A DNA stretch of 25,846 nucleotides from a virus, in the IMG/VR virus record IMGVR_UViG_3300042691_021874, positions 1-25,846 of that record, one strand, 5' to 3'. Each line of letters begins with the position of its first letter. Positions within the stretch are counted from its first letter, which is position 1. The notes under the pieces are model-generated. The model was not told the origin of the DNA, ran no database searches, and was given only the letters and a program-made list of their open reading frames with translations. A program made the translations under genes and the position numbers. Shown here one piece after another: positions 3,725 to 25,846 of this stretch.

Positions 3725-4659
3725 TATTTTTTATCTTTAAGTTTAGCTAAGATAGCTTCTTTAATTTTATCTTTAGCAGATAAATAAGATGATTCAGCCA
3801 TTTTATTTTTTTTCTTTTTTGATTTGCCTTTAAATTGAGGTGCATCAGATTTTCTAAAATCATCAACATATGCACCAGCACCCATAGAAGGTTTTAATTT
3901 TTCATCAATTACATCTTCTTGAGCAGCAACATCAACTATTGAATCAATTTGTGGTTCTTTTATTTCAAAATCAAGATAATGTTTTGCTGAAATAAGCATA
4001 TCTTTAGCTTTAATAATTTTGGATTGCCACCAATGTGGAAAATCAACTTCTTGTTCACCTTCAAACTGATCAATCATTTTATAAAGTTCCATAGCGTATT
4101 TTCCAATACGATATAAATCTGCTTTAAGCATATGTGGTTCATCATCTTGATGACCTAGATCTAAATCTTCTGAAATTGGTTCATCTGCAATTAATTCTTC
4201 TGAGGTTTCATATTCATCAATCACACCTCTACCTTTTAAAATATCAGCTTGGGTTACTTTACCATCACCTGTTAAATCAGGGAATGATTTTTTCTTTTCA
4301 GACAATGGCTTAGATAAAGCCGCTTGAATCATTTCTTTTAATTTAGTTTCTTTGTCCATTGGTTCTTCAGTTGGTGCTTCTTCAGCGGGTGTTTCTTTAG
4401 CAGCAGGGGCTTCTTCAGGTTGTTCTGCTTTTTTCTTTACTTGATTAACAGCAATTCCATAAGCATATAATTCACCATCAGCTCCTTTAGTATCATATAA
4501 TTTATCTAAACGAGTATTGATAATTGATTTAAAATTGTCTATTATCTCTTTAGATTGTTCAGCAGTTGGAATAAATCCTTCATTTAAAGAACCAAAAGAT
4601 CCAACGGGAGTTCCGTTGGATGTTTTGTTAATTTCATCTTTGGTTCTTTGTTTTTGCAT
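3724..4659 (-). CDS. Modular virion-associated protein with EF-hand-like loop
   Basis: This 311-residue protein starts at the ATG at 4659, one base after the histone-like gene's stop. It has an N-terminal helical region (1-78), an acidic PEEAP/PAEE linker (80-104) and a tag-like helix TKLKEMIQAALSK (105-117). Next is an EF-hand/dockerin-like loop FPDLTGDGKVTQADI (126-140) with D128, T130, D132 and D139 in calcium-ligand spacing. A helical domain around EVDFPHWWQSKIIKAKDML (204-222) follows. A lysine-rich C-terminus ends in a second tag-like helix KDKIKEAILAKLK (297-309). The loop and the FPHWW domain are familiar from marine phage hypothetical proteins. The role is unknown; calcium binding is inferred from the motif alone. 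Confidence 0.8.
   Translation of the reverse strand: MQKQRTKDEINKTSNGTPVGSFGSLNEGFIPTAEQSKEIIDNFKSIINTRLDKLYDTKGADGELYAYGIAVNQVKKKAEQPEEAPAAKETPAEEAPTEEPMDKETKLKEMIQAALSKPLSEKKKSFPDLTGDGKVTQADILKGRGVIDEYETSEELIADEPISEDLDLGHQDDEPHMLKADLYRIGKYAMELYKMIDQFEGEQEVDFPHWWQSKIIKAKDMLISAKHYLDFEIKEPQIDSIVDVAAQEDVIDEKLKPSMGAGAYVDDFRKSDAPQFKGKSKKKKNKMAESSYLSAKDKIKEAILAKLKDKK
4373..4391. repeat. 19-bp exact repeat, copy 1
   Basis: The 19-mer GGTGCTTCTTCAGCGGGTG occurs here and again at 5048-5066. Both copies encode part of the Pro/Ala/Glu linker (read on the minus strand). It could promote recombination or linker exchange between the two genes. Confidence 0.7.
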
Positions 4660-4860: not shown

Positions 4861-5499
4861 TTACTGTTCTTCTCCACCAATATATTCGCTAACGAAAAAT
4901 TTAAGTGTGTTTCCTATTTGAGTAGTAAGTTTTTCATTGTTCATACCTTTAGCTACTTTTAAAGCAGACATTAAATGATCCATAAGATCACCTTCTGTTC
5001 CTTCCATATCAGCAGCTATATCTTCTAAACCACCTCCACCAGCGGCAGGTGCTTCTTCAGCGGGTGCTTCTTCACCTTCAGGTGCTTCTTCAGCAGGTAC
5101 TTCTTCTGTTTCAGTATCTTCTACTTCAACTTCTTCTTCATCTTTTTTAGCTTCCTCTAAAAATCCACCTTCAGCAGCAGCATCCATTGCTTCTGCTTCT
5201 TCTTCTCCAGGATCTGCTTCCATTAGTCTTGGATCAAGATCATAATCCATAGGTTCATCTTCTAAACCTTGCATAGATGGAAAATATCCTTTTTCTTCAT
5301 CATTATAATCACCATATAAATCTTCCTCAGAAGATCCTTCATAATCATCATCAGGATTTCCAAGTTCAGCTATGATCATTTCTTTAATTTTAGAACGAAG
5401 ATCACCTTCATCTAATTTTTCTTTTCTTAGTATTGGATTTAAATTCTCTAAAGCTCTACTTTCTTTTAAGAATTTTCTTAAATCAAAATTATCTGCCAT
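4861..5499 (-). CDS. Highly acidic tagged protein, probable head-internal or virion protein
   Basis: This is a 212-residue, strongly acidic protein. It begins MADNFDLRKFLKESRALEN, a tag copy with LKE as candidate cleavage triplet. A second tag-like helix follows at residues 33-46 (DLRSKIKEMIIAEL). Residues 47-165 are an Asp/Glu-rich low-complexity stretch with PAEEAP repeats and a GGGG linker. The C-terminus (172-208) is a conserved-looking helical segment (DLMDHLMSALKVAKG, then TTQIGNTLKFFVSEY). The acidic core recalls T4 internal and scaffold-type proteins in composition only. The start overlaps the upstream gene's end with a one-base gap (TAA-A-ATG). Role in head packaging is inferred. Confidence 0.8.
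   Translation of the reverse strand: MADNFDLRKFLKESRALENLNPILRKEKLDEGDLRSKIKEMIIAELGNPDDDYEGSSEEDLYGDYNDEEKGYFPSMQGLEDEPMDYDLDPRLMEADPGEEEAEAMDAAAEGGFLEEAKKDEEEVEVEDTETEEVPAEEAPEGEEAPAEEAPAAGGGGLEDIAADMEGTEGDLMDHLMSALKVAKGMNNEKLTTQIGNTLKFFVSEYIGGEEQ
5048..5066. repeat. 19-bp exact repeat, copy 2
   Basis: Identical to 4373-4391. It lies in the PAEEAP linker coding of the acidic protein; a close variant (…CAGCAGGTA…) follows about 40 bases later. Confidence 0.7.
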
Positions 5500-7244: not shown

Positions 7245-8648
7245 TTACAACATGTCTTTTACTCTTTCAAGTAATTCTTCACTAAAATCAACTCCATGTC
7301 GAAATTTAAATTGTTTTTCTAATCTATCTGTAGGTAAACCCTTATTTTTTAATAAAATATAAGCACCTAAATCAGCATCCATTTCATCATCTTTTGAATA
7401 TGGGCCGGTATGTCCTAAAAGTAAATGGGTTATTTCATGGGCTTCAACAATTTTAAAATCATCTTTATTTAAACCAGAATCAACAAAAGTTTCACCATCA
7501 ATAAAAATTGTTTTATCTTGTGGGTAATAAAAACCATATCCATATTCATCAAAATATGGTTTTAAAGTTCCATAATTTTCATTTTCCTTAAATATAACAG
7601 TAATATTTACCCCAGGTTTAAAACTGCTAGGATACGATATTAAGTCATTTTCTGTTTCTTCTTTTAAAACACCTTCAGTAATAGTATCTGTCCAATTTCT
7701 AAACATCATATTACCTTTTTCATATGCTTCACGTTCAATTTCAGGTAAATCACCTTCCTCGTTTGTATTTTGAGTTGTAATATTACCTAATTTACCATTA
7801 CAATTTTGTTCGTGATGGATCATTTCATGCGCAAATGAACGCATAACATCTTTTGGATGACGATCCATTGTATAAAGCACAATTGATTTTTCATTTGGAT
7901 TGTAGTATGCTGTTTTACCAAAGAAATCCCTAGCATTTTCTACATCATCCTCTATAAATTTAACTTTAGGTAAAGGACGAATATTCATCCCCTTACTTAA
8001 CATATATTGAATTAAAGATGATAACATTGTAGGATAACTAAATTTGCTTGGTTCAGCATACATTACTTCCTGGATAGGGGTTTTAGTAAGGATAGACCAA
8101 ATTTTATCTCTATCTTCATTTGATATTTCAGTAGGTAAATAACGTTGGAACGATTCATACTCACTGTTTAAAACTGCTAATCTAGCATTTGTACCACTTA
8201 CGCGATCTCCTTCTCCTTCACTTTTAATTACAATAGGTTCAAAGTTATCGTATTTTCCTTTTAAACTATCAAATCTTTTTAAATCACCCATATCTTCCTC
8301 TCCTCTAATTCCTACTACAGGAAAATAAAAGCTTGTTGGATCATTCTTAATAATTGAACTTACATCTGTTATAGGGGAAGGATTTTGTGAAATTTGAATT
8401 TCAACATTAGATGGTAAATATTTTTTGTAAATATTCCATATTTGTTCACTTTCTTCTTTTGTAATTCCATCCCTGTCTTTGTGTCCTATCAAAACAATAA
8501 CTTTTGACATTTCGGGACGTTTTGCAACCTCATCAACTAAATAAAAATGACCTAATGTAGGTGGTTTAAAACCACCAGGGATTAAAGCAACACCTTGTTT
8601 AGTTTCCTCTAGTAAAGGTTGTATAAGTGATTTAACTAACGAATTCAT
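7245..8648 (-). CDS. Three-domain protein: nucleotidyltransferase plus two HExxH metallopeptidase modules
   Basis: This is a 467-residue protein starting at the ATG at 8648, inside the end of the kinase gene (17-base overlap). Residues 1-15 (MNSLVKSLIQPLLEE) form a tag with LLE/LEE. Residues 18-175 are a cytidylyltransferase-like Rossmann domain. They carry GGFKPPTLGHF (a (H/T)xGH nucleotide-binding motif, T31-H34) and SGTNAR at 151-156, in the place of the ISSTxxR signature of NMN/pantetheine adenylyltransferases. Residues 205-320 hold the first zincin motif HEMIHHEQN (H274, E275, H278) with Glu303-307 downstream. Residues 345-465 hold a second, HEITHLLLGH (H404, E405, H408, H413) with E422 and D424-D426, like the ImmA/IrrE type. 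Substrates are unknown; NMN or a nucleotide-linked substrate is inferred for domain 1. Confidence 0.85.
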   Translation of the reverse strand: MNSLVKSLIQPLLEETKQGVALIPGGFKPPTLGHFYLVDEVAKRPEMSKVIVLIGHKDRDGITKEESEQIWNIYKKYLPSNVEIQISQNPSPITDVSSIIKNDPTSFYFPVVGIRGEEDMGDLKRFDSLKGKYDNFEPIVIKSEGEGDRVSGTNARLAVLNSEYESFQRYLPTEISNEDRDKIWSILTKTPIQEVMYAEPSKFSYPTMLSSLIQYMLSKGMNIRPLPKVKFIEDDVENARDFFGKTAYYNPNEKSIVLYTMDRHPKDVMRSFAHEMIHHEQNCNGKLGNITTQNTNEEGDLPEIEREAYEKGNMMFRNWTDTITEGVLKEETENDLISYPSSFKPGVNITVIFKENENYGTLKPYFDEYGYGFYYPQDKTIFIDGETFVDSGLNKDDFKIVEAHEITHLLLGHTGPYSKDDEMDADLGAYILLKNKGLPTDRLEKQFKFRHGVDFSEELLERVKDML

Positions 8649-9381
8649 TTACTTTATTTTTTGCTACATCTAATGTATCAAATTCACGTTCTATATTTAG
8701 AAGTGATTTTATTTCTTGATTTGTTTTTTCTTTATCTGCTTTAGCTTTTGCCATTTCCTCCGGTGATTTTTCTTTTCCTTTAGGTTGAGGAAATTGATTA
8801 ATTATCGATTGAACATCAAATGCAGGATCAGCATTTTCCGGATCGTTATTTAAAACAACAATATTATTTCCAAATGATTGTCTGTATAAATCGATATTTT
8901 TTACTACACCCTCCCAGCTTTTTAATACTGCACTTGTAGGTAAACTTCTACCACGTTCAGCATTACGAGTTAAAGAAGTCATAGGTGATACATAAAGTAA
9001 TATCATAAATGTATCGTATCCCATTGCCTCTAAATCTCCTTTTTTCTTAAGTAATGGATTTGAAGCAGCACCTGTACCATCAATTATAATATTTTCTAAA
9101 TTAGATAAAGCTTGAGTTTCTTTTTCTCTGGTTACTACTCTAGCTTTACCCATTAATTTAGCTGCAGTGGAAAGTTCTTCAGGGGACATTGAAGCAAAAT
9201 CTTCTTTACCTAATTCAGTTTTTAATAACTCTTCGTAAACATCATCTACGTTTATTACTTTAAAGCCTTGAAGACCTAATTGATTAAGTATAGTTGTTTT
9301 ACCAGATCCAGCAGGTCCAGCCATAAAAATAGCTTTAGGTTGTCCTTGAACCTCCTTAAGTAATTGAACTAGACTTATCAT
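8632..9381 (-). CDS. P-loop kinase (zeta-toxin/polynucleotide-kinase-like) with N-terminal tag
   Basis: This is a 249-residue protein. Residues 1-12 (MISLVQLLKEVQ) are the tag with LKE. A P-loop kinase core follows immediately, so the tag leaves almost no linker. Walker A is GPAGSGKTT (22-30), with D46/D47 in INVDDVYEELL, a strand-end Walker-B-like IIIDGTG (98-104), and a LID-like basic stretch RNAERGRSLP (139-148). This is typical of the AAA_33/zeta-toxin/polynucleotide-kinase group that phosphorylates small substrates or nucleic-acid 5' ends. Residues 200-249 are a charged helical tail. The target is unknown. It overlaps the nucleotidyltransferase-peptidase gene by 17 bases, suggesting coupled expression. 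Confidence 0.85.
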   Translation of the reverse strand: MISLVQLLKEVQGQPKAIFMAGPAGSGKTTILNQLGLQGFKVINVDDVYEELLKTELGKEDFASMSPEELSTAAKLMGKARVVTREKETQALSNLENIIIDGTGAASNPLLKKKGDLEAMGYDTFMILLYVSPMTSLTRNAERGRSLPTSAVLKSWEGVVKNIDLYRQSFGNNIVVLNNDPENADPAFDVQSIINQFPQPKGKEKSPEEMAKAKADKEKTNQEIKSLLNIEREFDTLDVAKNKVNEFVS

Positions 9382-9392: not shown

Positions 9393-10166
9393 TTACAAGT
9401 TTCGTTTAGCTACTGTTCTAAATTCAGTAAATATTGGTGAGTGGGTTGGGTTTTCTAGATCAAATAGACGTTTTACTGTTTTAAAAATATCAATATTTTC
9501 ATCAAATGAGCGGGTCGATTCAACTACTTCCCATCCTTTACCTTGCATTTTGTCTTTTTTGGCTCCACGTTTAGATGATTTTAACCATAAAATACCGTAA
9601 TGATCTATTTTTCTACCAAAACATTCTTCATAACATTGACCATAAACTGCAGTTTGTAATTCATATGTTGTTTGTAATTGGTTTGATGTTTTTAAATCTA
9701 ATAACCATAATTTACCCTCAATTTCTACAATCAAATCACACGTACCAGCTACTTTTAATACATCTGAGAATATATGGACTTCTGTTTCAATTAATGTAGG
9801 TTTAATGGTTTCCCAAAATTCAACAAAACGTAAAAACATTTGCCAAACATCTGGATTATGTTGTGGACGATCTTTGTCATCTAAAAATCTTAATTCTTCT
9901 CCATTCAAATAAGCTTCACACAATTCATGAACTTGAGTACCTTCTTCAGCTGCTTTTTTAACAATATAATCTGAGGCGAATCCAACTTGTTTAAGCCAAT
10001 TTTCAAAAAATTTACCTTTTGGGTAATATCCTAAAACATATGTTACAGATGGATAATATTTTCCATTTCGTCTATAATATCGGGAATCAGGTAATGTTAT
10101 TTGTTGTGCATCGTCTGAAATTTCTAAAATTCGATCATAGGATTTTTTAATGTTCCTTTTTTTCAT
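9393..10166 (-). CDS. RecB/Cas4-like PD-(D/E)XK exonuclease
   Basis: This is a 257-residue protein. Core motifs are GTQVHELCEAY (His80, as in the RecB-type nuclease N-terminal motif), IETEV (E127/E129), AGTCDLIVEIEGKLWLLDLK with D144, D157 and K159 (the D...DxK catalytic triad), and QTAVYGQ (the Q-x3-Y motif). This is the PDDEXK_1/Cas4-Dna2 class. I see no iron-sulfur Cys cluster, so it is the cluster-free phage form. It likely degrades or processes DNA ends in replication or recombination. The gene overlaps the primase by ATGA, which supports a shared replication role. It has no tag at its N-terminus. Confidence 0.85.
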   Translation of the reverse strand: MKKRNIKKSYDRILEISDDAQQITLPDSRYYRRNGKYYPSVTYVLGYYPKGKFFENWLKQVGFASDYIVKKAAEEGTQVHELCEAYLNGEELRFLDDKDRPQHNPDVWQMFLRFVEFWETIKPTLIETEVHIFSDVLKVAGTCDLIVEIEGKLWLLDLKTSNQLQTTYELQTAVYGQCYEECFGRKIDHYGILWLKSSKRGAKKDKMQGKGWEVVESTRSFDENIDIFKTVKRLFDLENPTHSPIFTEFRTVAKRNL

Positions 10167-11092
10167 ATAGTTAAAAGTTTTTTCTCCATCAATTTGTATT
10201 GAGTTAAAGGAGAAACTGTTTGTACTAGTTTAGTAAAGTTTTCAAATCCCATTTCACTTGGATCTTTTCCTTGCATTTCTACGAGGTAAACTTCCTTTCC
10301 AATGTCTAAAAGTTGTTCACAAAAGCCAAGGGCTTGTTTCAAAGCATCTGTATCTAGAGCAATGTATATTTTTTGCACCTTAGAGGTAACTATTTTTTTC
10401 ATTAAATTAGATTGAATATTTTTTCCAAATAATGGAATAGCATTTCTTTTTATTGCCATTGCATCAAATGGACCTTCACACAATATGATTGGTAAATCCC
10501 AATTAATAAACAATTCAAACGGTATTATATCGCGGGACGTTTCAGGGTTACGGTATTTGGTGAAAGCATCTTTTTCGAATGATCTAGCGGTGAAATAATT
10601 TAATTTACCATTGCTATCATATGAAGGAATAACAATCATATTATTATATGGACCTGAATTGCAGTATCCAATGTTATATTTTAAGATATCTTGTTTAGAT
10701 ATGTTTCTTTTTTTAAGATATGCTAGAGCATGCCTTGCAGTAAAATCTTTATTGTTGATAAAAGTTTTAAATTCTTTTGGAAGTTCTAATATATATTGTG
10801 GATTTTCTCCTATATCATCTATAGTAACATTTTTTACTAGTTTTCCAAGTTCTTGAAAATAGGAAGCATCAACTTGAACTTGTTTAAATAAACTTTTAAT
10901 TGTTTTTCCTTTTTTACCACATGCCCAACAAGCCCAAGGGTTATTTCCTTGACTATTTTCTGTAAAATTAACTTCAAGTTTTGGTTTATGGTGATGGCAA
11001 AAAGGGCATGTGTATGCTTGATTACCGCGAGCGGTACGTTTTCCTGTTCCTAAAACAGAATTTACCAAATTAACTAGTAATTCATTTACCAT
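10163..11092 (-). CDS. DnaG-type DNA primase (CHC2-like zinc finger + Toprim)
   Basis: I chose the ATG at 11092 (MVNELLVNLVNSVLG) over a TTG 15 bases upstream, giving 309 residues. A zinc finger has C29/C32 in CPFCHHHKPKLEVNF and C55/C58 in WACWACG. An intermediate domain follows, with the reading YNIGYC, MIVIPSYD and LNYFTARSF typical of DnaG-like primases. The Toprim motifs are ILCEGPFDAMAI (E206) and IYIALDTDA (D247, D249). It makes RNA primers for the lagging strand and would correspond in role to T4 gp61. No helicase gene is in the window. It overlaps the exonuclease gene by four bases (ATGA). Confidence 0.9.
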   Translation of the reverse strand: MVNELLVNLVNSVLGTGKRTARGNQAYTCPFCHHHKPKLEVNFTENSQGNNPWACWACGKKGKTIKSLFKQVQVDASYFQELGKLVKNVTIDDIGENPQYILELPKEFKTFINNKDFTARHALAYLKKRNISKQDILKYNIGYCNSGPYNNMIVIPSYDSNGKLNYFTARSFEKDAFTKYRNPETSRDIIPFELFINWDLPIILCEGPFDAMAIKRNAIPLFGKNIQSNLMKKIVTSKVQKIYIALDTDALKQALGFCEQLLDIGKEVYLVEMQGKDPSEMGFENFTKLVQTVSPLTQYKLMEKKLLTI

Positions 11093-11109
11093 AAATAAAA
11101 GATACAACT

Positions 11110-14183: not shown

Positions 14184-17100
14184 TTACCCAATCAACCCCT
14201 TTTCAGTAAGAAGTTTAACATATTCATCAGTATTTTTATCTAATTTTGGAATTACATACTCTGGGGTAAGAATAAATGAATTTGGAGAGGCACCATTTGT
14301 AGGCCTAAACCCTTCAAATATTATTTGAGAAGAATCTTCTACATACCTTCTAATTAAAAAATGATCTAAATTAAATACTGAGGTACTAGCACTTATTGGA
14401 AGATTTTTATCGAAATGGACTTCAATGGATCCTGTTTGAAATATACGTCCTGAACCGCTGTCAGCAGGGGAAAATATTTTTCCTACAACATATGTAAAAT
14501 CTTCTCTTCCTTCAAATCTAAATTCATCTCCATATTGAATTGACCACGGTAACGCTATGGGATTAAATCCTGATCCTGTAATATCAGATTGTTTAACATT
14601 TGAATTATAGAGTTCAACTAATGTTTGGTTTGAAGAAGTTATAACATATGGATAACTTCCTGAGTTAGGATAACCCCAAATTGTATTAGCCCCTGAAGAT
14701 GTTACTGGGAGTGTGTAGGATGGGTATTGTAAAACTTTAAATTTTGATCCAGGATAAATTTCAAAATTAGTAAGATTAGTTTGGTAAGGAGCCCCATTTT
14801 GGTATGGATTCTGGATTATAGAGTTATAATATTTAGCATATATTCTATATAAATCATTTACTTGTAATTCAGGGTTATTTACAGTATGTTCAAAATATAT
14901 TTTACCATCTGGGGGAACTTGGCTAAGGGTACTGGCTATTAAAGTGGAATTTTTGTAAAGTAAAATTTCAGCATCATAACCATTTAGAGGAACATCTATT
15001 CCAGCAACATTTTCTGTTCCTAATACTGTTAGTTCAACATTAAATGTTAAATTAACTCCATCTATTACAGCATTTAATGGAACTTGATACCCATTAGAGC
15101 TTAAATAAGAGCCACCATATGTGCTAGTATTAAATTGAACTAATGTTACTGTGTTTGGAGTAGATACATTATCTATAGTATTTTTACCAAATAAAGCAGT
15201 ATAATTTCCAACATTTCCTGTATCAGAAGGAACAATATCTTCAAAACTCATTGTTGTATTCCATTGTGCATTTGGAGCACTTCCTGATTGAGTATAAAGA
15301 ATGGGCTCAATTCTATATCCTCCTCTAATTATATTTCTAAATTGGTTTTCTACTCCACCTTGATTTCCTGATTGGCCTAGAATAGAAGAATATCTAAATC
15401 TGTCTCCTGATGGGAAGTTTTGTTGGACAGTAGGTAAAGAAATATTTGAAATATTAGGTGTAGAAATATTTCCATCTTGATCAATTAAATACTTAATTGT
15501 AAATGCAGAAGCATTCATTTTTTCAGGGGCATAACTTCCATCCATGTAACCATAAGCAACATATGATTTTAAATTTTCAACAGTTGGAAGTTTACCAAAA
15601 GTACCACTATCACCTTCCGTCCACTTATTTAGTTTTTGAGAAGTTGATTTTGAACCTTCATATCTAGGTATAGTTACACGTTTTGAAGTATAATTTGAAT
15701 CTTGTACTTTTGCTCTAGTTGCACTTCCACTTATAATATAACCAAAATTAACTGGCTCTGTTAACCCTGCTGAATAATCAACGTCCATATAATAGGAACT
15801 GTCTCTTAATTCAAAAGCATTATTTAATAATGCATTTTCATCACTATTGTAGAAATTTGGGGTTGTAATGTATGGTTCTAAAATTGTAGGTTCACAACTT
15901 GAGGCACTTACTGCTCTACTTTGAGTAATTAATAAACTACCTGATTTTAAAACAGGGGTAGAACCTCCAGTAACATTTCTAGTAAGAGCAAGAAAATAAA
16001 TATCATTTTGTAAAGGATATACTAATGAAGATGTAAAAGTAGTTGTTGTTACTGTTGTTAAATTAATCCCAGAAATTTGATTTATAGTAGAAAAATTACC
16101 ATTTCTGTATAATCTAAGAGCTAAAGTACCTGATCCATTAGTAGTAGATGAACCTGAAGTAGTAATAGATGCTGAAAAAGCTAATGGAGTATTTGGAGTA
16201 TTTTCTAGGGTAAAGTAACCAAATGTTGAATTAAAATACGGAGTTCCATAATGGGATGCATTTCCTGTTACTGAAGTCCATAAATTAATTCTGTCTTGGA
16301 ATGGGTTTAAGATTGAAGGGTCATTTATATTTTTAGTAGTTCCTTTTGAGGCGGAAACAGTATAGTCAAATACTTGATTAGGCCATTGAGAAGGACTATA
16401 TAATTGGGTTTGACTTAATTGATATAAATAATAATTAGGTTGTTCATTTAAAACTGTTAAATTGTATGGAATATATAAATTGTAGAAAGGAATATATATT
16501 AAAACTTTATTTATATCTCCTAAAGCAATTGTATTATCATTTCCGTTGCAATCAATTTTAGATATTTTTAAATATTTTGTTGAAAATATATTTGGGTTTA
16601 ATGATCCTAAAAAGAATGTATTTTCATAAAAAAACAATATTTCTCCATCTTGTGGTGAAGTAATATTGTTTAAAAAATTACTTTCAAATATAGAAGTTTC
16701 AACACTTGAAGTTCCATAATAATGAACTTGTTTATATTCAAATTCTTGATTACTTATTGGATAAGCCTCATTTAATATTCCATTTGATACTATTATATTA
16801 GATCCACTAAATTCACCGTTGTAAAACTCATCTTGATTATCGTGCAATACAAGTACTGAACCTGAAGGGGTTTGTATGGTTTCATACCAACTTTGAGATG
16901 TATTTAAAATAGAGTTAAATGTATCAAATACACCCCCTGTTCCACCACTAAAATTTTCTACAGTACCTGGTTCATAATTGTTCCAAGTTGGTTTTAAAGT
17001 GCCTGAAATATCTAAATCTTCCCATTCTATTTGAGGTTGAGGATATTTATTTCTTTCAAGTAAATGTTGCTTAATTACGATTCCAGAGGCAAGACTTGTA

Positions 17101-20100
17101 CGTGCAGGTACAAAATCTCTAATCATTTTAAATAATGAATTATCAAAGAATTTAATTAAACGTATAAAATCTGTTAAATTGTAATTTGAAGTATATTTTT
17201 CAAAATATTCGTTTCTTAATTGATCCAATGCAGGATATGTAGTTGCAGAAGATGATCTTAATCTTGGATCACCAATAAATTCCCCTATATTAAATGAACC
17301 AATTTGATCCATTATATCTTCATTTATCTCATTTTGTGGTGAAAATGCTACCTCTAAGTAATTTATATTTTGAGTATAGCTTTGAGATATATTTGCCATT
17401 TGAGATAATGACATAAATGGTGATAAAGTATCTCCTTCAGGTAATACATTATTTTCTATTCTAATTTTATCCGAAATAGCATTTCTAATACCTGCTATTG
17501 GTTGATCGTAAAAGAAATATTCTTCATTTGGAGTAAAAACTGGAGGATAAAAAAAAGTAAAATTACTATCAGAAACAAATGATTGAGTTGGGATCCAAGA
17601 TCCTGTTATTTTAGGATGAATTGAAGTAGAACCAGTATAAAGTTCACCTCCTAAAGATGCTCTAAATAAGAGTTCATTTGGTCCGCTATTTAATGAATTT
17701 CCTTCAATTGAATAAGGATTCATAATATAGTCCTTAAATACACTTTCACTTATAGGATTAGCATAATATCTAATTTCTTGATAGGAGCCTGAAAATGCTT
17801 TATATTGGGTAAGGGTATTATTTCCTCTACCAAAAACAGAACCATTAGTGGGTAAAGCCCAAGCTAAAGTTGAGTCTTCTGTTATTGAGGCAGTACTAAA
17901 AAATCCTAGTAAAGTTCCGTTATCTCCACCTTCATATATTTTATTTCCTGCAGATAGCCCAAAATCATCTCCGTTTCTAGTTATCATAACAGACCACCAC
18001 CCCTCATCAAAAAATGGGAGATATATACTAGCTGATGAGTTGGGGTAATTAATATAATCCGGGATAAAAGTTAGAGTAGCATATTGGTAATATGGGTCTA
18101 TTATAGATCCACTATAAGAACCACTAGTATATCCTGATCCAGTATAAGTTAAAAGAAGATTTGTTGGGGAACTACCAACATCATTAAGATACCATAAACT
18201 TTGAGAGTATGGAATATTTGTTTGAGGTAATCCATTAGTTTTAAATCTAAAGGTTAATGTTGAAGGAACATTATCTGGGGAGTTCCAGTCTGAGGTAAGT
18301 TCCCATGGAGTAGTAATATAATTACTTCCCGTAGTATAAAAAGCGTAATTGAATTCATTTTGCCAATAATCCCAATCATTTGAATCTACTTTATCTTTAC
18401 CTCCATATTCATTAATTCTTAATATAGTATCAGGAATACCATATGAGGTAATTAAAGCGCGCAAACCAGGTAAAGTACCTTTTGATTTAAGTAGGTATGG
18501 TAAATTATGGTAAATACGTTTGTATAACGATTTATTTACATCATCTAACGGCATATAGTCATTAGATGCTGAAATAAATTGATCAATATATTCAAATCCA
18601 GAGGGTGTAGGTAAGGATCCTGTTATATTTGGGAAAGGGAATAAACCCCCTTCAGGAGTTAAACCTAAAAATGCAGTATACAAATCATCATTGGAAAAAT
18701 TATTTTGATATAATTTAATCCCAAAATCACGAATAGCATCTGCAACTATATCTTTAGATACACCATATTCTAAACGGTTATCCGCATTATATTTTTCAGT
18801 AACATCCTTATAATATATCCAAATATTATCGTAAAATTGTCCTACCATATTTACAAATAACTCATATTGAGCATTGTTTGGATCATCTCTTAAATATTCA
18901 GGTATAGAATAATAAAGATTATTTGGATTATCGTTATCATAAACAGAAGCTGAAAGAAGTAAACCTCCATAATATGGGTTATATTCATTAGTACTTCCTA
19001 TCCATGATAAAACTTGTGGTGTGGTTGATTTTGCTAATTCATATGGTTTTTCTGTGTTGGTTTTAGGCCAAGCATATGAACTACTTTCATAATATAGAAA
19101 ATAATCATAACCATCAAAATTAGTTATAATATTATCTATTTTAGATTGGTAATATACAACACTTCCACTTATGTCAGAATTAATTGTATTATTTAATAGA
19201 GCTATTGAAGATGAATATTGTTCAATTAATTGGATTTTAGAGTAAAAATTTTCTAATCTAGTTTGAACTGAACTAAAATGGGTAAATTCTGAAAAGTTGG
19301 TGTAATCTACATTTATATCTATTTCTTTTTCTTCAAGTAAACTATTTAGTTGTTGTTGGGAACTAGTTAAAGATGTAGTTACTAAATCAGTATATGAAAG
19401 TTCTATAGTTGAATTATTAACTTGATCTTTTAAATCTAAATTAAAATTAGGTCCTTGAATAGATGTAGTATCATTAGGAACAAAAATTTCATCCTCAAAT
19501 GCTATCTGATATGCTATAGAATCTTCAAATGAAGTAACAATCCATAAAGTAGAATTAATATCGAATTCATCTGGAAGTGGTTCGTATAATTTAATAAGGA
19601 TTGTAGAGTTGGTAGTATCTTGGAGATCAAGAGCTATATTATTAGCAATAATTAAATTATTGTTTCCAAAATTTAAATAAAAATCTACAAAATAATCACT
19701 TTCTTGTCTTTCTTGAATAAATTTATTTGTTTGTTCAATTAATGAAAGTTCATCTAATGTATTGCTATCTAATCTAATTTCTGTTCTATCATTTGATATT
19801 TCAGATATATAAAGTTGTTCAAGATTAGATCCTACTTTTTTATTTAAAAAATTATAATAAGTATTATATTCTCCAATATCAAAACCAGCATCTATTAACG
19901 ATTGTGATGGTTCTACATAAATAGAAGAAAACTCATTACTTAATGATGATTGACCATCATTCAATATAGTGTAATCTACAAAGTTAAAATCTGTATAAAG
20001 AATATCTTTATCAAGAGAATATACAAAAAATTCAATATAACTTTGAGAAGAAAAATTATTATTTACATCAAATGAAGATATCAAATTAGTTTCTCGAGTT

Positions 20101-20156
20101 TCATATGTTTGAGATATGAAATCTAAAGCATTTATTTGAGTAACTGTTACTGCCAT
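14184..20156 (-). CDS. Giant virion structural protein with LamG-like domain, probable baseplate/tail component
   Basis: This is a 1990-residue protein. The N-terminal 500 residues are beta/helix mixed with a coiled-coil-like stretch near 260-330. Around 545-590 is a conserved block (NLPYLLKSKGTLPGLRALI, TSYGIPDTILRINEYGG). Residues about 615-825 form a LamG/concanavalin-like domain (STLTFRFKTNG, EGWWSVMITRNGDDFGL, SGSYQEIRYYANPIS). Near 985-1035 is FFDNSLFKMIRDFVPARTSL, then IVIKQHLLERNKY, which I recall from equally large proteins of Bacteroidota and marine phages. The C-terminus is beta-rich. It takes the place where T4 has the large wedge protein gp7 and other distal tail genes, but I see no sequence match to gp7. 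Glycan binding by the LamG-like domain is inferred. Confidence 0.85.
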   Translation of the reverse strand: MAVTVTQINALDFISQTYETRETNLISSFDVNNNFSSQSYIEFFVYSLDKDILYTDFNFVDYTILNDGQSSLSNEFSSIYVEPSQSLIDAGFDIGEYNTYYNFLNKKVGSNLEQLYISEISNDRTEIRLDSNTLDELSLIEQTNKFIQERQESDYFVDFYLNFGNNNLIIANNIALDLQDTTNSTILIKLYEPLPDEFDINSTLWIVTSFEDSIAYQIAFEDEIFVPNDTTSIQGPNFNLDLKDQVNNSTIELSYTDLVTTSLTSSQQQLNSLLEEKEIDINVDYTNFSEFTHFSSVQTRLENFYSKIQLIEQYSSSIALLNNTINSDISGSVVYYQSKIDNIITNFDGYDYFLYYESSSYAWPKTNTEKPYELAKSTTPQVLSWIGSTNEYNPYYGGLLLSASVYDNDNPNNLYYSIPEYLRDDPNNAQYELFVNMVGQFYDNIWIYYKDVTEKYNADNRLEYGVSKDIVADAIRDFGIKLYQNNFSNDDLYTAFLGLTPEGGLFPFPNITGSLPTPSGFEYIDQFISASNDYMPLDDVNKSLYKRIYHNLPYLLKSKGTLPGLRALITSYGIPDTILRINEYGGKDKVDSNDWDYWQNEFNYAFYTTGSNYITTPWELTSDWNSPDNVPSTLTFRFKTNGLPQTNIPYSQSLWYLNDVGSSPTNLLLTYTGSGYTSGSYSGSIIDPYYQYATLTFIPDYINYPNSSASIYLPFFDEGWWSVMITRNGDDFGLSAGNKIYEGGDNGTLLGFFSTASITEDSTLAWALPTNGSVFGRGNNTLTQYKAFSGSYQEIRYYANPISESVFKDYIMNPYSIEGNSLNSGPNELLFRASLGGELYTGSTSIHPKITGSWIPTQSFVSDSNFTFFYPPVFTPNEEYFFYDQPIAGIRNAISDKIRIENNVLPEGDTLSPFMSLSQMANISQSYTQNINYLEVAFSPQNEINEDIMDQIGSFNIGEFIGDPRLRSSSATTYPALDQLRNEYFEKYTSNYNLTDFIRLIKFFDNSLFKMIRDFVPARTSLASGIVIKQHLLERNKYPQPQIEWEDLDISGTLKPTWNNYEPGTVENFSGGTGGVFDTFNSILNTSQSWYETIQTPSGSVLVLHDNQDEFYNGEFSGSNIIVSNGILNEAYPISNQEFEYKQVHYYGTSSVETSIFESNFLNNITSPQDGEILFFYENTFFLGSLNPNIFSTKYLKISKIDCNGNDNTIALGDINKVLIYIPFYNLYIPYNLTVLNEQPNYYLYQLSQTQLYSPSQWPNQVFDYTVSASKGTTKNINDPSILNPFQDRINLWTSVTGNASHYGTPYFNSTFGYFTLENTPNTPLAFSASITTSGSSTTNGSGTLALRLYRNGNFSTINQISGINLTTVTTTTFTSSLVYPLQNDIYFLALTRNVTGGSTPVLKSGSLLITQSRAVSASSCEPTILEPYITTPNFYNSDENALLNNAFELRDSSYYMDVDYSAGLTEPVNFGYIISGSATRAKVQDSNYTSKRVTIPRYEGSKSTSQKLNKWTEGDSGTFGKLPTVENLKSYVAYGYMDGSYAPEKMNASAFTIKYLIDQDGNISTPNISNISLPTVQQNFPSGDRFRYSSILGQSGNQGGVENQFRNIIRGGYRIEPILYTQSGSAPNAQWNTTMSFEDIVPSDTGNVGNYTALFGKNTIDNVSTPNTVTLVQFNTSTYGGSYLSSNGYQVPLNAVIDGVNLTFNVELTVLGTENVAGIDVPLNGYDAEILLYKNSTLIASTLSQVPPDGKIYFEHTVNNPELQVNDLYRIYAKYYNSIIQNPYQNGAPYQTNLTNFEIYPGSKFKVLQYPSYTLPVTSSGANTIWGYPNSGSYPYVITSSNQTLVELYNSNVKQSDITGSGFNPIALPWSIQYGDEFRFEGREDFTYVVGKIFSPADSGSGRIFQTGSIEVHFDKNLPISASTSVFNLDHFLIRRYVEDSSQIIFEGFRPTNGASPNSFILTPEYVIPKLDKNTDEYVKLLTEKGLIG

Positions 20157-21660: not shown

Positions 21661-23505
21661 TTATAAAGGAACTACTCTACCTTTTATATCAGTATCAGGA
21701 TATCTTATTTCAAAAATACTAGGATCTAATGAAGGATATATTACTTGGTTTTGAGTAGCAGCTGTTATATCATATGCATATTGAGAATATCCTTGGGTTG
21801 AACCTGCTTTATTTACAATAGAAATGTTTTTTACGGTCTGTACTCCTTTAATTTTGCTTAAAAGAACATATAAATCTTTTAAAAATATAGGTTGATTTAA
21901 TTGCCAATTGTCTGTGTTAAAATATAATTTTAATGAATTTATACAATTTAATAAAACTTCATTGTTATTATATTCTGGAAGTACTATGATTTCAAAATTT
22001 ACTCCTATATTGATTATAAAGGCATCTCTTATTTCTATATTATCACCAATCATTCTGTATTGGGATAAGTAAGTTCTTAGATTATTTTTTAATGTGTTAG
22101 TAGCATAATCTAATTTACCTGTAGAATTTTGGGAAAGAACATATAGATTTAAAGTTTCAATTGTTGAAACTTGATTATCTGTTAGTTTAGGTTGTTCAAT
22201 ATATGCTTTAGAAATAGTTCCATAGTCAGAAGGCATACTTAAAGCTCTAATTAAATAATCATCAGCTGTTACTGAACGTTTTTGGGAAGCTACTAAGGCT
22301 AATGAATTTTGTCTGATTTCTTCAGGAGTATCTCCTCCCTTCCCTCCAGATGCTGCTTCAGGATTAGTAACTGTTACAGAAGAAAAAATATAGTTAGCAG
22401 TAACTGGGTTTAAATTGGTTTGGGTAAAATTAATAAAACTATTATTAATACTATTTAATGTATTAGAAGAAATATTTGAATTAAGTCCCCCCCCTGTTAA
22501 ATATCTTACAGTTAAAGTAGTGTTAGAAGGTGCTATACCATATGTTCCTGTGTAAAGAAAATTTACAGGTGAATAAGCAGATGTTAATTTATCTTTTTTA
22601 AATGGTAAACCAATACCTACATTATTAGCATTTGGAGTAATTTCTTCATCTATCGTGTTTGGAGAACCTACACCAAATTGGATTTGAATATTATTTAAAG
22701 ATGTTATACGGGTAGCAAATCGTCGTTGAACTTTTTTAAGTTTTAAAAGATATGGTGTAGTATTATTACTATTAGGGTCATTTATATTAGTATTTTTAAT
22801 ACTATCTAAAACCATTTCTTGACCTAAATGATCTACTTCATACCATACATTTCCATCAGAATCAGTAATATCTAATATTTTTAAAAAATTATTAGCACTG
22901 ATGTTTATTGTAGTAAATGGAATAGGGTCTGTAAAGGCAAATGTTTCTGTGTTTAGTGTAGCTGAAATTGAGTTTCTAGATTTTTTTAAAAGATAATATT
23001 GAGGAGTGCTTCCTGCTATTTGATATACTGAAACTTCGGTTGGGTCTTGGGAGCTTGAAAGAGAAAAATCTATTTTATCTTCACATAAAAAATTAGTTCC
23101 ATCTTGGGAAGATACTATAACATTTTCTCCTAAAACTACAGCATAATCATAATCAGGAACCGTTATTCCTCCTACAACTTTGGATGGAACTTGTTGATAA
23201 AAATCTATAGTAGTTTGAGAAGCAACAGAATTTTTTGGTTTATAGCCAAACATATATGCTAAATCATATATATTATTTGTTTGTTGAGCATATTGTAAAA
23301 ATGTTTCTTGAAATTGATTATCAAGATAAAAACTTAAAATATCCCCAACGTATGCGGCTTGTTCCATAAACATCATACCAGGAGATGAAGGGGAAAAATC
23401 TGTGTATGTGTTAGGAAAATAAGTTTTAGAATATTCTATTAATCGTTGTCTTAAATCAGAAAAGTCACGATTTAAATATTTTATATCTCTATTAGTAGTA
23501 GCCAT
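21661..23505 (-). CDS. 6: Baseplate wedge protein, gp6-like (baseplate J family)
   Basis: This is a 614-residue protein. The N-terminus has the gp6/J-type signature: IKYLNRDFSDLRQRLIEYSK, then YTDFSPSSPGMMFMEQAAYV and GDILSFYLDNQFQETFL. The middle has the J-type core DYLIRALSMPSDYGTISKAY, and the C-terminal part has KLYFNTDNWQLNQPIFLKDL followed by a strand-rich end (VQTVKNISI). It is about the size of T4 gp6 (660). It forms the baseplate wedge dimer that closes the inner baseplate ring. It follows the gp25-like gene by one base, the T4 order gp25-gp6. A run of eight G at 22487-22494 encodes TGGGL. Confidence 0.9.
   Translation of the reverse strand: MATTNRDIKYLNRDFSDLRQRLIEYSKTYFPNTYTDFSPSSPGMMFMEQAAYVGDILSFYLDNQFQETFLQYAQQTNNIYDLAYMFGYKPKNSVASQTTIDFYQQVPSKVVGGITVPDYDYAVVLGENVIVSSQDGTNFLCEDKIDFSLSSSQDPTEVSVYQIAGSTPQYYLLKKSRNSISATLNTETFAFTDPIPFTTINISANNFLKILDITDSDGNVWYEVDHLGQEMVLDSIKNTNINDPNSNNTTPYLLKLKKVQRRFATRITSLNNIQIQFGVGSPNTIDEEITPNANNVGIGLPFKKDKLTSAYSPVNFLYTGTYGIAPSNTTLTVRYLTGGGLNSNISSNTLNSINNSFINFTQTNLNPVTANYIFSSVTVTNPEAASGGKGGDTPEEIRQNSLALVASQKRSVTADDYLIRALSMPSDYGTISKAYIEQPKLTDNQVSTIETLNLYVLSQNSTGKLDYATNTLKNNLRTYLSQYRMIGDNIEIRDAFIINIGVNFEIIVLPEYNNNEVLLNCINSLKLYFNTDNWQLNQPIFLKDLYVLLSKIKGVQTVKNISIVNKAGSTQGYSQYAYDITAATQNQVIYPSLDPSIFEIRYPDTDIKGRVVPL
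22487..22494 (-). other. G8 homopolymer inside gp6-like gene
   Basis: On the coding strand GGGGGGGGA encodes Gly-Gly-Gly using GGG GGG GGA in a very AT-rich genome. The same string occurs in the gp25-like gene. It is slippage-prone on paper; a shift would truncate the protein. Confidence 0.6.
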
Positions 23506-23506: not shown

Positions 23507-23911
23507 TTATAATTCTAGTTCTAAATTGTCTGTTATATTAGTATTTTGCACTGTGTATTTTAATTGAACAGTTAATGTATTAGTATCATCATCACGTAAT
23601 ATATTTAATGATGTTATATTAATACCTGGAAAAAATGTTTTTAGTTGGGTTTCAATTCTATTTTCTATTCTATATAAATTATCTTCAGCTATTTGTTCAA
23701 ATATAAAAGCACGCAATCCCCCCCCAAAGTTTGGATTTAAAGGTCTTTCTCCAGGTTCAGTAAGAAAAAAATTAATTAAATTATTTTTTATAGCATCTTT
23801 AGTAGTAAAATTAGATATAAAAACAGCAGGACCATTTAATGGTAAGTTTACCCCAACAGCAACATTAGGATTCAAATCAACAGGATTTATTTGTTGGGGG
23901 TTAAAAGGCAT
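23507..23911 (-). CDS. 25: Baseplate wedge protein, gp25-like (GPW/gp25 family)
   Basis: This is a 134-residue protein, the usual size for the family (T4 gp25 is 132). Residues 38-72 carry DAIKNNLINFFLTEPGERPL, then NPNFGGGLRAFIFE, the E-P-G-E-R-P and N-x-x-F-G-G-G-L-R pattern of gp25/W proteins. The C-terminal beta-strands (NTLTVQLKYTVQNT) end the fold. It is the wedge component next to gp6 that contacts the sheath end and controls contraction. It overlaps the upstream gene (stop/start at 23911) and is one base from the gp6-like gene. The FGGGL segment is encoded by a G8 tract. Confidence 0.9.
   Translation of the reverse strand: MPFNPQQINPVDLNPNVAVGVNLPLNGPAVFISNFTTKDAIKNNLINFFLTEPGERPLNPNFGGGLRAFIFEQIAEDNLYRIENRIETQLKTFFPGINITSLNILRDDDTNTLTVQLKYTVQNTNITDNLELEL
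23718..23725 (-). other. G8 homopolymer inside gp25-like gene
   Basis: On the coding strand GGGGGGGGA encodes the conserved FGGGL motif with GGG GGG GGA. It is an exact match, including the trailing A, to the tract in the gp6-like gene next to it. Confidence 0.6.
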
Positions 23912-24258
23912 TATTTAGTATTTAATAAACTCATAATTTGGTCCATCCCCACTTCACCATTACCTAAATTACCATTTATAGGATCAGATACTTGAGGTCT
24001 AAATGACTGTTGGACATCATTTGATGTAAAACTTAAAGCTGTTTCTCCTAATACATCTTTATATTTTTGTCTTATATCCATTGTTGGTGGAGTAAACGTA
24101 GGTTGGGTAGGTTGAATTGGGTTTGTTGTTGGAGCATATGATTCTCTAACAACTGTTTTCGGTGAACGAACTGCTTCTAAAAGAATATCTTTCAATTCTT
24201 CTTGAATTGCTTCTCGTACTGCTTCTTTAATTAATTTTTTTAATCCGTCGGTTTTCAT
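23911..24258 (-). CDS. Small tagged protein next to the baseplate genes
   Basis: This is a 115-residue protein starting MKTDGLKKLIKEAVREAIQE and continuing ELKDILLEAV. It is the strongest copy of the amphipathic tag, extended to about 30 residues, with IKE, IQE and LLE triplets. A Pro/Thr-rich linker follows (TNPIQPTQPTFTPPTM), then DIRQKYKDVLGETALSF and GNGEVGMDQIMSLL. From memory it is a conserved hypothetical of T4-like marine phages next to gp25. It is the only tagged protein in the tail block, so the tag need not mean head packaging for this one. It may be an assembly factor. Confidence 0.8.
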   Translation of the reverse strand: MKTDGLKKLIKEAVREAIQEELKDILLEAVRSPKTVVRESYAPTTNPIQPTQPTFTPPTMDIRQKYKDVLGETALSFTSNDVQQSFRPQVSDPINGNLGNGEVGMDQIMSLLNTK

Positions 24259-24276: not shown

Positions 24277-25305
24277 TTATTCTGCTTTTAAATCGTTTTG
24301 TTGTATATAAAATACTAGTTCATCTATTAATATCTGATCAATTGATGAAAATGACCATTCTCCTTTTAACATTACTACACCTTGTTTATTTCTAGCTATA
24401 GCTCTTCTACGTTTTAAAGAATTAGTTGTAGGTTCAGTTTCAACACCCATTTCAAACCCATTTACATTTATAACAATAGGCGATTCTTGTTGTGTTTGTT
24501 GTAAAGTTAAAGCTGTTAATTCAACTGAGAGTGGTTCTTGGATAGCATCTGGGGAACAATGTTGAATGAGATTATCTAGCAAATTTAAATATTGAATTAA
24601 TTGAGTTAAAACTTGTCTAGTTAAAATAAGTACTGCTAATATTCCAGCATTAGCTATACTTAATCTTTCTAATAAATTACTAATTTTTTGTAAAGCTATA
24701 GGAACACTAGCAGGAACAGGAACAGGAACTGCTAAACCTGCTGTAATTGCAATTTGTAGTGAAGTTATTACTCCTTGGGTTATTCCTAAAGCTTTAGTAG
24801 TTGAGTCTATTATTTGATAAGATTTATTAATTTGTTTTACTAGTTTATTTTTACGACTAATTAACCTAGATAATTCATCAGGGGTTGGACATGTGATATT
24901 AGGTAAATCAGGGATTTTAGTTTTTCCTTTAGATACTAATTGTGATACTTTAGTAATACCAAAAGATGATATTAATGTTAAAGATAAAGGTATAGCGGTT
25001 TGTTTTAAATTTATGACCAAATCAGTAAGTTTCTTTTGAGCAAAATATTCGGGTGTTTTTCCTTCCTTATTAAGTTCTTTTATTTGATCTATAGATAGTT
25101 GAGATGATTCTATTTTATCTAATTCTAAAGCATCTTGAGTAGGTGTTAATTTAATTATCCCTAAATTTTCTTTTACAGTACCATCCCCTTTATATGGGGT
25201 CTTTTCTACAGATTCATACCCAGGAGCAGATATAGTAATAGAAGGTAAATTATTACCTTCATTTAAAGATGATGTTAATGGAATAAATACGTTTTCAGTT
25301 CCCAT
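24277..25305 (-). CDS. Structural protein; N-terminus completes a split carboxypeptidase-regulatory-like domain
   Basis: This is a 342-residue protein. Residues 1-55 (ENVFIPLTSSLNEGNNLP, then SITISAPGYESVEKTPY, ending IIKLTP) look like the second half of a CarboxypepD_reg-like beta domain whose first half is the end of 25308-25790. The ORFs are two bases apart, in different frames. Residues 88-110 and 175-245 are long hydrophobic helices (LTLISSFGITKVSQLVS, PVPVPASVPIALQKISNLLE, ILAVLILTRQVLTQLIQYLN). Residues 265-342 are beta/charged (VINVNGFEMGVETEP, then RRRAIARNKQGVVMLKGEWS). It probably belongs to the tail or baseplate. I think it and 25308-25790 are one protein in relatives, but cannot check this. 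Confidence 0.75.
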   Translation of the reverse strand: MGTENVFIPLTSSLNEGNNLPSITISAPGYESVEKTPYKGDGTVKENLGIIKLTPTQDALELDKIESSQLSIDQIKELNKEGKTPEYFAQKKLTDLVINLKQTAIPLSLTLISSFGITKVSQLVSKGKTKIPDLPNITCPTPDELSRLISRKNKLVKQINKSYQIIDSTTKALGITQGVITSLQIAITAGLAVPVPVPASVPIALQKISNLLERLSIANAGILAVLILTRQVLTQLIQYLNLLDNLIQHCSPDAIQEPLSVELTALTLQQTQQESPIVINVNGFEMGVETEPTTNSLKRRRAIARNKQGVVMLKGEWSFSSIDQILIDELVFYIQQNDLKAE

Positions 25306-25307
25306 AA

Positions 25308-25790
25308 TTAATTAACTGTTGCTTTAATTGGTTTACCAGTTTTTGAATCTATTACTGTTGCTGTGACTGTAGGATTTGTTGTAGGTTCAAATAGATATTT
25401 TGGGTATGTATTATCTATTAAAGTAAAAATATACCCAAACTTACCTTTTTGGTTTTTGGGTAGTTTAATTGAATATACCCCATTTAAAAAAATTAAACCA
25501 GTTGGTTTTTTTGGAATTATTACAGTATTATTTTTATCCCTTATTTCAAAAAGTATAGTATACCCAGTCCACTTATTTTGAGAATCATATAAAAAAGAAT
25601 ATTTTTCTTCATTTAACCTTAATTCATAATAGCCATTTAAAAAAGAAAATTTATCTCCTAATTCAGGAAGAATTAAATCATATGTGTATCCTTTTATGTT
25701 TTTTTTTCTTTCATCTGTTGGTCTAGCAGAGTTAAAAGGAAATGTATATTTTGATGATTTGTATGGATCTATTAATGTTGGATCTGCCAT
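25308..25790 (-). CDS. Structural protein; N-terminal part of a probable split gene
   Basis: This is a 160-residue protein, one base after the preceding stop. Two similar beta units are visible: ELGDKFSFLNGYYELRLNEE and GLIFLNGVYSIKLPKNQKGK. The C-terminus VTATVIDSKTGKPIKATVN matches the opening of a carboxypeptidase-regulatory-like domain (V.G.TGKPI.GA.V) and stops abruptly where the next strand should begin. The next ORF carries that continuation in another frame. A -1 shift at the stop would give in-register KATVN-LI-MGTENVF. Real gene end plus split gene, programmed frameshift and sequence error are all possible. Confidence 0.75.
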   Translation of the reverse strand: MADPTLIDPYKSSKYTFPFNSARPTDERKKNIKGYTYDLILPELGDKFSFLNGYYELRLNEEKYSFLYDSQNKWTGYTILFEIRDKNNTVIIPKKPTGLIFLNGVYSIKLPKNQKGKFGYIFTLIDNTYPKYLFEPTTNPTVTATVIDSKTGKPIKATVN

Positions 25791-25791: not shown

Positions 25792-25846
25792 TTAATTAGT
25801 TTTTACAAAGTTAGACTTAATACTATCTAGTTGTTTTAAAACTTTA
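25792..25846 (-). CDS. Partial C-terminus of upstream gene (5' end outside window)
   Basis: The last 17 codons of an open frame are visible: KVLKQLDSIKSNFVKTN, then TAA, one base before the next ATG. The spacing matches other gene junctions here, so I read it as the end of another minus-strand gene. Nothing can be said of its function. Confidence 0.5.
   Translation of the reverse strand, partial: KVLKQLDSIKSNFVKTN

What the first reader, a model, noticed from the sequence alone, without database searches (positions are those of the whole stretch)
24277..25790. One beta domain split across two ORFs at a -1-type junction
The end of 25308-25790 (IDSKTGKPIKATVN) and the start of 24277-25305 (ENVFIPLTSS ... 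ITISAPGYESV ... IIKLTP) together make one carboxypeptidase-regulatory-like domain. They are two bases apart in different frames. A one-base slip at AATTAATTATG (read AAT, then TTA ATT ATG) would give one in-register protein of about 505 residues. This may be a recent frameshift, a programmed event, or a sequence error. I recall single-chain versions in marine phages but cannot verify it.
Basis: partly seen in the sequence, partly recalled or inferred. Interest (0 to 1): 0.55.

Follow-up and report, generated by a model that had tools for sequence, protein, structure and literature searches.

The report
Docking domain split across two genes
In a group of uncultured phages one small protein domain is repeatedly split between the end of a variable tail gene and the start of the conserved gene after it, which suggests that the two proteins snap together so that different parts can be swapped at the phage's tail.

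Summary
In detail: ORF A (25308-25790, 160 aa) ends, and ORF B (24277-25305, 342 aa) begins, inside one carboxypeptidase-regulatory-like (transthyretin-like) domain, two bases apart. It is neither an accident nor a programmed slip. Two other IMG/VR contigs carry the identical junction. Of 125 non-redundant loci, 83 hold the domain's first half inside B, 22 in the gene just upstream, none in both; 17 show neither and 3 are cut by contig ends. All three frame offsets occur, so no fixed slip can join the halves. The split state needs about 10 changes on the tree, at least 6 forced. The upstream gene carries interchangeable cargo (GH19 lysozyme-like, DUF5675, unknown families); two cargo families occur both fused to B and split from it. 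Between unrelated cargos the half-domain can be the only shared part. Best reading: translationally coupled genes whose products dock by completing one domain, as described for VgrG-Tle1 of type VI secretion. Docking is inferred from sequence and a guided model; no binding was measured.

The parts
25792..25846 (-). 3' end of the upstream spike gene (gp5-like by position and sequence as I read it; no profile was run on it), ending ...VLKQLDSIKSNFVKTN, stop TAA; complete in relatives (about 420 aa)
25308..25790 (-). ORF A, cargo gene, 160 aa, unknown cargo family; its C-terminal tail is the first half of the split domain
   Evidence: same cargo in L086, L091, L093, L028
25311..25358 (-). First half of the split domain (TVIDSKTGKPIKATVN, strands 1-2)
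   Evidence: profile hit 8.0 bits; DNA homology with L083 begins 4 bases before it
25303..25310 (-). Stop-start junction TAA TT ATG; same pattern as the spike-A junction (TAA T ATG)
25141..25305 (-). Second half of the split domain (MGTENVFIPL...IIKLTP)
   Evidence: alignments; models of relatives
24277..25305 (-). ORF B, 342 aa, conserved baseplate-region protein with long predicted helices and a nearly invariant C-terminus (LKRRRAIARN...DQILIDELVFYIQQNDLKAE)
23911..24258 (-). 115 aa gene downstream of B, unknown
23507..23911 (-). Baseplate wedge gp25 (PF04965, 49.7 bits)
21661..23505 (-). Baseplate wedge, gp6/baseplate-J-like (phrog_219, 3.4e-16)

Best explanation
A and B are two separate, translationally coupled genes of a contractile-tail baseplate operon. 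B is the conserved scaffold; A is an exchangeable cargo. The cargo's C-terminal tail gives strands 1-2 and B's N-terminus gives the remaining strands of one carboxypeptidase-regulatory-like (transthyretin-like) domain. The break lies in a flexible loop between strand 2 and the DGxFxI strand, where the domain tolerates a chain end. After coupled translation the two chains would complete the domain together and so fix the cargo to the tail. Shown: the split, its recurrence, the mutual exclusion of the two states, the varied frames, the cargo exchange. Inferred: that translation is coupled, that the two halves bind, that B sits at the tail tip, and that cargo such as lysozyme acts on the host wall.
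For: Mutual exclusion: of 125 non-redundant loci 83 carry the first half inside B, 22 in an ORF upstream, 0 in both, 17 neither at 8 bits, 3 cut by contig ends (Fisher p 5e-14, relatedness ignored). The classes are well apart: in the 83 single loci no upstream ORF scores above 3.0 bits, in the 22 split loci no B scores above -0.7. First half at 8 bits or more upstream in 21 of 29 by-eye split loci against 2 of 4160 shuffled ORFs. Recurrence: 10 changes on a 105-row tree, at least 6 forced; 9 and 7 on a 106-row tree with by-eye labels. Stop-start gap within 10 bases in 18 of 22. Same cargo fused and split: fused L016 against split L113 (71.5%) and L094 (56.7%); fused L121 against split L134 (66.5%), L117, L126, L022, L141, L112, L105, L096, L108. 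Nine cross-cargo pairs: DNA homology at the spike end and in B in 9 of 9, at the half-domain in 4 of 9. Between otherwise dissimilar cargos blastp finds only the C-terminal tail, e.g. L083 and window A (residues 136-159), L122 and L130 (52% over 65 residues). L026: a 32-codon ORF that is nothing but the first half, overlapping B by ATGA. L094 read-through model: tail strands in blocks of mean pLDDT 77-93, stop (185) just after a loop under 50 (164-183), domain aligned across the stop with SusC NTE (Z 9.4) and carboxypeptidase D (Z 9.2). Precedent: VgrG-Tle1 fold complementation of a TTR domain (PMC10715212, passage).
Against: No binding data. The model (mean pLDDT 69, pTM 0.53; cargo body mostly under 50) was guided by single-chain homologues and read through a stop, so it does not show that two free chains assemble; Foldseek's first match for it is SleC, with carboxypeptidase D at E 0.012 and 9hfj outside the 50 listed. 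Selection on the half-domain is clear only in the window's cargo family (pN 0.07-0.19 against 0.19-0.37 in the cargo body, 5 pairs); over all 12 pairs the tail's pN/pS (0.61) is no lower than the cargo body's (0.58, 11 pairs), and one pair exceeds 1. In 5 of 9 cross-cargo pairs no DNA homology is seen at the half-domain, and in the same-cargo pair L105-L117 it has diverged. In L111 an extra cargo without the half-domain stands between the half-domain gene and B. In L096, L105, L111, L112, L125, L022 the first half scores under 4 bits. L171 and L196 have a B without first half and none is evident in the last 130 residues of the ORF upstream.
Confidence: 0.62

Rival explanations
1. Two separate proteins whose half-domains do not pair. 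The first half at the end of the cargo gene is a leftover or a shared stretch of DNA that serves as a crossover point for cargo exchange.
For: DNA homology restarts at or near the half-domain in 4 of 9 cross-cargo pairs, as expected of a crossover point; overall pN/pS of the tail is no lower than that of the cargo; the half is degenerate in several loci and not evident in L171 and L196.
Against: Mutual exclusion of the two states and a minimal 32-codon ORF that keeps only the first half (L026) are odd for a relic; in the window's cargo family the tail is more conserved than the cargo; the split is kept in several clades.
Confidence: 0.22
2. The two ORFs act apart: A is a free enzyme or structural protein made together with B, and B's partial domain folds alone or binds another partner such as the spike.
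For: A' in L111 has no half-domain and still stands before B; B heads are well conserved by themselves (pN/pS 0.40).
Against: The same cargo families are covalently joined to B in L016 and L121.
Confidence: 0.08
3. Programmed frameshift or stop bypass makes a fused A-B protein in this phage, alone or beside the separate chains.
For: Single-chain relatives exist, so a fused protein would be functional; the two frames lie two bases apart.
Against: Gaps run from -8 to 38 bases and all three frame relations occur (B taken to start at its first ATG); in the window the frames overlap only at A's last sense codon and no slippery heptamer lies there; in L111 another gene lies between the halves.
Confidence: 0.06
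4. Recent frameshift mutation or assembly error in one virus.
For: None beyond the frame change itself.
Against: Identical in contigs L082 (4854 bases) and L002 (2346 bases), 100%; the same kind of split in 22 non-redundant loci.
Confidence: 0.02

Closest known systems
VgrG-Tle1 loading in type VI secretion (enteroaggregative E. coli; PMC10715212, passages seen)
   Same: A cargo strand completes a transthyretin-like domain of a contractile-tail tip protein (their words: fold complementation), which loads the cargo.
   Different: There the cargo's N-terminal strand adds to VgrG's C-terminal domain; here the cargo's C-terminal strands would add to the N-terminus of a protein that is not the spike, single-chain relatives carry the same cargo, and it is a phage. 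Binding is untested here.
CarboxypepD_reg / transthyretin-like domains (PF13620; SusC NTE 9hfj; carboxypeptidase D 5aq0)
   Same: Same fold by profile and by model in relatives.
   Different: Those are single chains; here the domain is divided between two genes.
Translationally coupled gene pairs (GeneTack class, PMC3711429, passages seen)
   Same: Start within 10 bases of the stop, kept across relatives.
   [quoted passage not shown] here it is.
T4 gp5 tail lysozyme (recalled, no call)
   Same: A wall-degrading enzyme carried at the tail tip.
   Different: In T4 the lysozyme is part of the spike chain; here lysozyme-like cargo is a separate gene before B.

Membership tests
CarboxypepD_reg (PF13620) | Profile score above the curated cut-off (32.3 bits) in single-chain relatives | tested here: met
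   5 of 15 single-chain loci scanned: L011 41.1, L107 35.8, L097 33.3, L068 39.3, L078 33.4 (the last two at the far N-terminus); the other 10 fall below it or have no hit
CarboxypepD_reg (PF13620) | Window's own ORFs score above the cut-off | tested here: not met
   No hit in A or B alone; the read-through L091 protein has none either
Transthyretin-like fold | Fold match over most of a solved domain | tested here: met
   For relatives, not the window itself. L094 read-through: 9hfj Z 9.4, rmsd 2.6, 78 of 80 aligned; 5aq0_B Z 9.2, rmsd 2.6, 79 of 82; single-chain L011: 9hfj Foldseek E 2.5e-4
Programmed frameshift gene | Conserved frame relation between the two ORFs | tested here: not met
   In 22 split loci gap mod 3 is 0 in 2, 1 in 7, 2 in 13
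Programmed frameshift gene | Slippery heptamer in the frame overlap | tested here: not met
   Window only, by reading: overlap limited to A's last sense codon and stop, no X_XXY_YYZ
Translationally coupled pair | Start codon within 10 bases of the upstream stop, conserved | tested here: met
   18 of 22 split loci
Translationally coupled pair | Downstream translation depends on upstream translation | not testable with these tools
   needs expression
TTR fold-complementation cargo loading (VgrG-Tle1 type) | Strand of the cargo completes the partner's TTR domain | tested here: inconclusive
   Sequence and guided model only
TTR fold-complementation cargo loading (VgrG-Tle1 type) | Carrier is a VgrG spike | tested here: not met
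   B is a separate gene that follows a spike-like gene in the order read

The most novel reading that the evidence does not exclude
A naturally split transthyretin-like domain serves as a standard plug between a conserved baseplate protein and interchangeable, partly peptidoglycan-active cargo in a large group of uncultured phages. Evolution moves between fused and two-chain forms of the same device, so one system shows how a covalent domain turns into a docking interface or back, and offers a natural split pair, with some twenty or more homologous pairs, for assembling proteins.
Probability: 0.5. Interest if true: 0.75.

Novelty: new variant of a known kind. Interest (0 to 1): 0.6.

Why it matters
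[quoted passage not shown] Here a small compact domain is divided again and again in related phages, with fused relatives of the same cargo, so fusion and docking can be compared directly. If the halves bind, it links phage cargo loading with VgrG-Tle1 loading in type VI secretion and gives a natural set of split-domain pairs.

Tried and rejected
Pfam and PHROGs on A and B alone gave nothing convincing. INPHARED holds no match to B at E 1e-3. PDB sequence profile: SusC homologue at 0.0033 is the best of 6. Foldseek and VIA gave no convincing match for the helical C-module of B; matches to AhlC (Z 9.8) and other helical bundles lie under the level that the tool calls common for helices. In the viral library two uncultured Caudovirales proteins (A0A6J5KV62, A0A6J5LXM8) match the L011 model best, without a function. 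GTDB genome contigs: 2 relatives only, one in a Flavobacteriaceae MAG, so the host is a guess. The dN/dS test of the tails was mixed.

The 8.0-bit threshold was chosen after seeing that the window scores 8.0; at 11 bits or more 19 of the 22 split loci remain. The first profile had two wrong training segments (L095, L112), left out. Rows dropped: 5 loci cut by contig ends before the tree; B frames under 200 aa or running off the contig and B proteins at 98% identity or more (222 to 125). Of the 17 complete loci with neither, 9 were read by eye as split with a weak first half (8, L019 being L111, and L189), 2 (L171, L196) have a B without first half and none evident in the last 130 residues upstream, and 6 have long B ORFs and were not resolved.

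Papers: the searches listed no report of such a split in a phage baseplate; subscription journals are mostly not held. PMC10715212 and PMC3711429 were seen as found passages only, the others as search listings.

Full report
The observation. ORF A (25308-25790, minus strand, 160 aa) ends ...TVTATVIDSKTGKPIKATVN and ORF B (24277-25305, 342 aa) begins MGTENVFIPLTSSLNEGNNLPSITISAPGYESVE. Stop and start are TAA TT ATG, two bases apart in different frames. The gene before A ends with the same kind of junction, TAA T ATG. Of 23 neighbouring gene pairs listed in the window, A-B included, 10 lie within 2 bases of each other (ORF 10163-11107 and the first genes of the window were left out of that list). 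The surroundings are a contractile-tail baseplate: gp25 (PF04965), a gp6/baseplate-J-like wedge protein and, in relatives, a gene of about 420 aa just before A that I read as a gp5-like spike without a profile test.

Is the domain real? Neither ORF alone matches Pfam. Relatives of B were fetched in five scans of viral contigs, two of them with cargo queries. In the single-chain relative L011 the N-terminus scores 41.1 bits against CarboxypepD_reg (cut-off 32.3); 5 of 15 single-chain loci scanned pass the cut-off. The L011 model (mean pLDDT 74) has the domain at residues 1-84 in blocks of pLDDT 80-94, and its best solved neighbours are the SusC N-terminal domain 9hfj and the transthyretin-like domain of carboxypeptidase D 5aq0.

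Accident or rule? The window's junction is identical in L082 over 4854 bases and in L002 over 2346 bases, contigs with different IMG sample numbers; whether these samples come from one site was not examined. By eye 29 of 111 distinct loci have a B without the first half of the domain, and in all 29 I read a first half upstream: in the next ORF in 28, one ORF further in L111. A profile trained on 60 segments of single-chain loci finds it at 8 bits or more in 21 of the 29; 2 of 4160 shuffled ORFs reach that. On 125 non-redundant loci the rule gives 83 single and 22 split, none with both, 17 with neither, and 3 cut by the contig end. The classes are well apart: among the 83 the best upstream score is 3.0 bits, among the 22 the best B score is -0.7. 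The threshold was set with the window's score in view; at 11 bits 19 split loci remain. Of the 17, 9 look split with a weak first half, 6 have long unresolved B ORFs, and L171 and L196 show no evident first half in the last 130 residues upstream, against the rule.

Evolution. On trees of the C-terminal module the split label needs 9 changes (at least 7 forced; 29 of 106 rows) or 10 (at least 6 forced; 22 of 105 rows). Both trees have long branches, and the bootstrap of the first had not settled. Gains and losses are not told apart. In the loci read and in the printed rows of the alignments the break is in the loop between strand 2 and the DGxFxI strand. Insertions occur in the same loop beside the break (L060, L095, L125, L126) and also in the single chain L085.

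Frame relation. Taking the first ATG as B's start, gaps run from -8 to 38 bases; modulo 3 they are 0 in 2, 1 in 7 and 2 in 13 of 22 loci. No fixed slip can join the halves across the family. In the window a slip would have to happen at A's last sense codon or stop, because B's frame is closed just upstream, and there is no slippery heptamer there.

Cargo. The upstream ORF varies. GH19 lysozyme-like: L090 (31.0 bits, cut-off 25.5), L125 (25.0) and L130 (20.3) by Pfam; L009, L095, L099 are 52-78% identical to L090. DUF5675: L105 and L122 above the cut-off, L096 below it; L134, L117, L126, L022, L141, L112, L108 are similar to these. A SGSYYP-type family: L113 and L094 (no Pfam hit for L113). Two unknown families: the window's (L086, L091, L093, L028) and that of L083, 37% identical to the first cargo of L111. 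Fused forms exist for two: L016 is 71.5% identical to L113 and 56.7% to L094, and L121 is 53-67% identical to nine split DUF5675-type cargos. In nine pairs with different cargo, DNA homology has islands at the spike end and in B in all nine, and includes the half-domain in four: L002-L083, L083-L091, L113-L141, L099-L141 (the pairs were chosen by me and are not independent). Between the window and L083 homology restarts 4 bases before the half-domain. By blastp several otherwise dissimilar cargos share only the tail, such as L083 with window A (66.7% over 24 residues) and L122 with L130 (52% over 65). So, at least there, the half-domain did not go with the cargo. L026 has no cargo: a 32-codon ORF holds only the first half and overlaps B by ATGA. 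L111 carries the L083-type cargo with the half-domain, then the window-type cargo without it, then B.

Mechanism. In L094 the two ORFs share a frame, so the stop could be read as a residue for folding. The model (mean pLDDT 69, pTM 0.53; cargo body mostly under 50) puts strands 135-143 and 153-158 of the cargo tail (blocks of pLDDT 77-93) with strands 193-239 of B (81-92), with a loop under 50 at 164-183 just before the stop at 185. The domain aligned across the stop with 9hfj (Z 9.4) and 5aq0 (Z 9.2); Foldseek's own first match is SleC, with 5aq0 at E 0.012. The guiding alignment contained single-chain homologues, so this shows that the halves are compatible with one fold, not that two chains bind. 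The nearest known case is VgrG-Tle1 of type VI secretion, where a strand of the cargo completes the transthyretin domain of the spike by fold complementation (PMC10715212, passage). I take docking by domain completion as most likely.

Selection. For five pairs of the window's cargo family (L091-L093, L086-L093, L091-L086, L002-L091, L028-L086) the tail's pN is 0.07-0.19 and that of the cargo body 0.19-0.37. Over all 12 pairs (11 for the body) they do not differ (pN/pS 0.61 and 0.58), and L117-L126 exceeds 1. The tail segments of up to 25 codons in the other families include loop residues, which may blur this.

Limits. No member was found among INPHARED records, the host is uncertain, no binding or expression was tested, sample metadata were not examined, and counts of related loci are not independent events.

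Noticed in passing
window 23911-24258, 183-656, 650-1318, 2553-3227, 4861-5499, 3724-4659, 7245-8648, 8632-9381 (all minus strand): Several seemingly unrelated genes carry a short amphipathic stretch like LxxLIKExVxExL, mostly near the N-terminus; it may be a shared targeting or packaging tag. Seen by reading only.
   Followed up: no
L111:3982-5000: Two cargo genes in a row before B: the first (L083 type, 37% identical) has the half-domain, the second (window type, 81% over residues 1-139) lacks it.
   Followed up: partly
L026:2146-2241: A 32-codon ORF that consists only of the first half of the domain, overlapping B by ATGA.
   Followed up: partly
L122:1404-2249 and other DUF5675-type cargos: H-x-G ... 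SS-x-GC motif by eye and a weak Tlde1_dom hit in L122 (E 0.023); from memory this resembles L,D-transpeptidase-type wall enzymes.
   Followed up: no
window 24280-25140: B's C-module is predicted (L011 model) as very long helices and a nearly invariant C-terminus, with no known family. Weak fold matches to alpha pore-forming proteins (AhlC, ClyA) are at the level common for helices.
   Followed up: partly
window 14184-20156: A 1990 aa ORF in the tail region with no PHROGs match at E 1.
   Followed up: no
L085:4200-5972: Single-chain relative with an extra stretch inserted in the loop where other loci are split.
   Followed up: no
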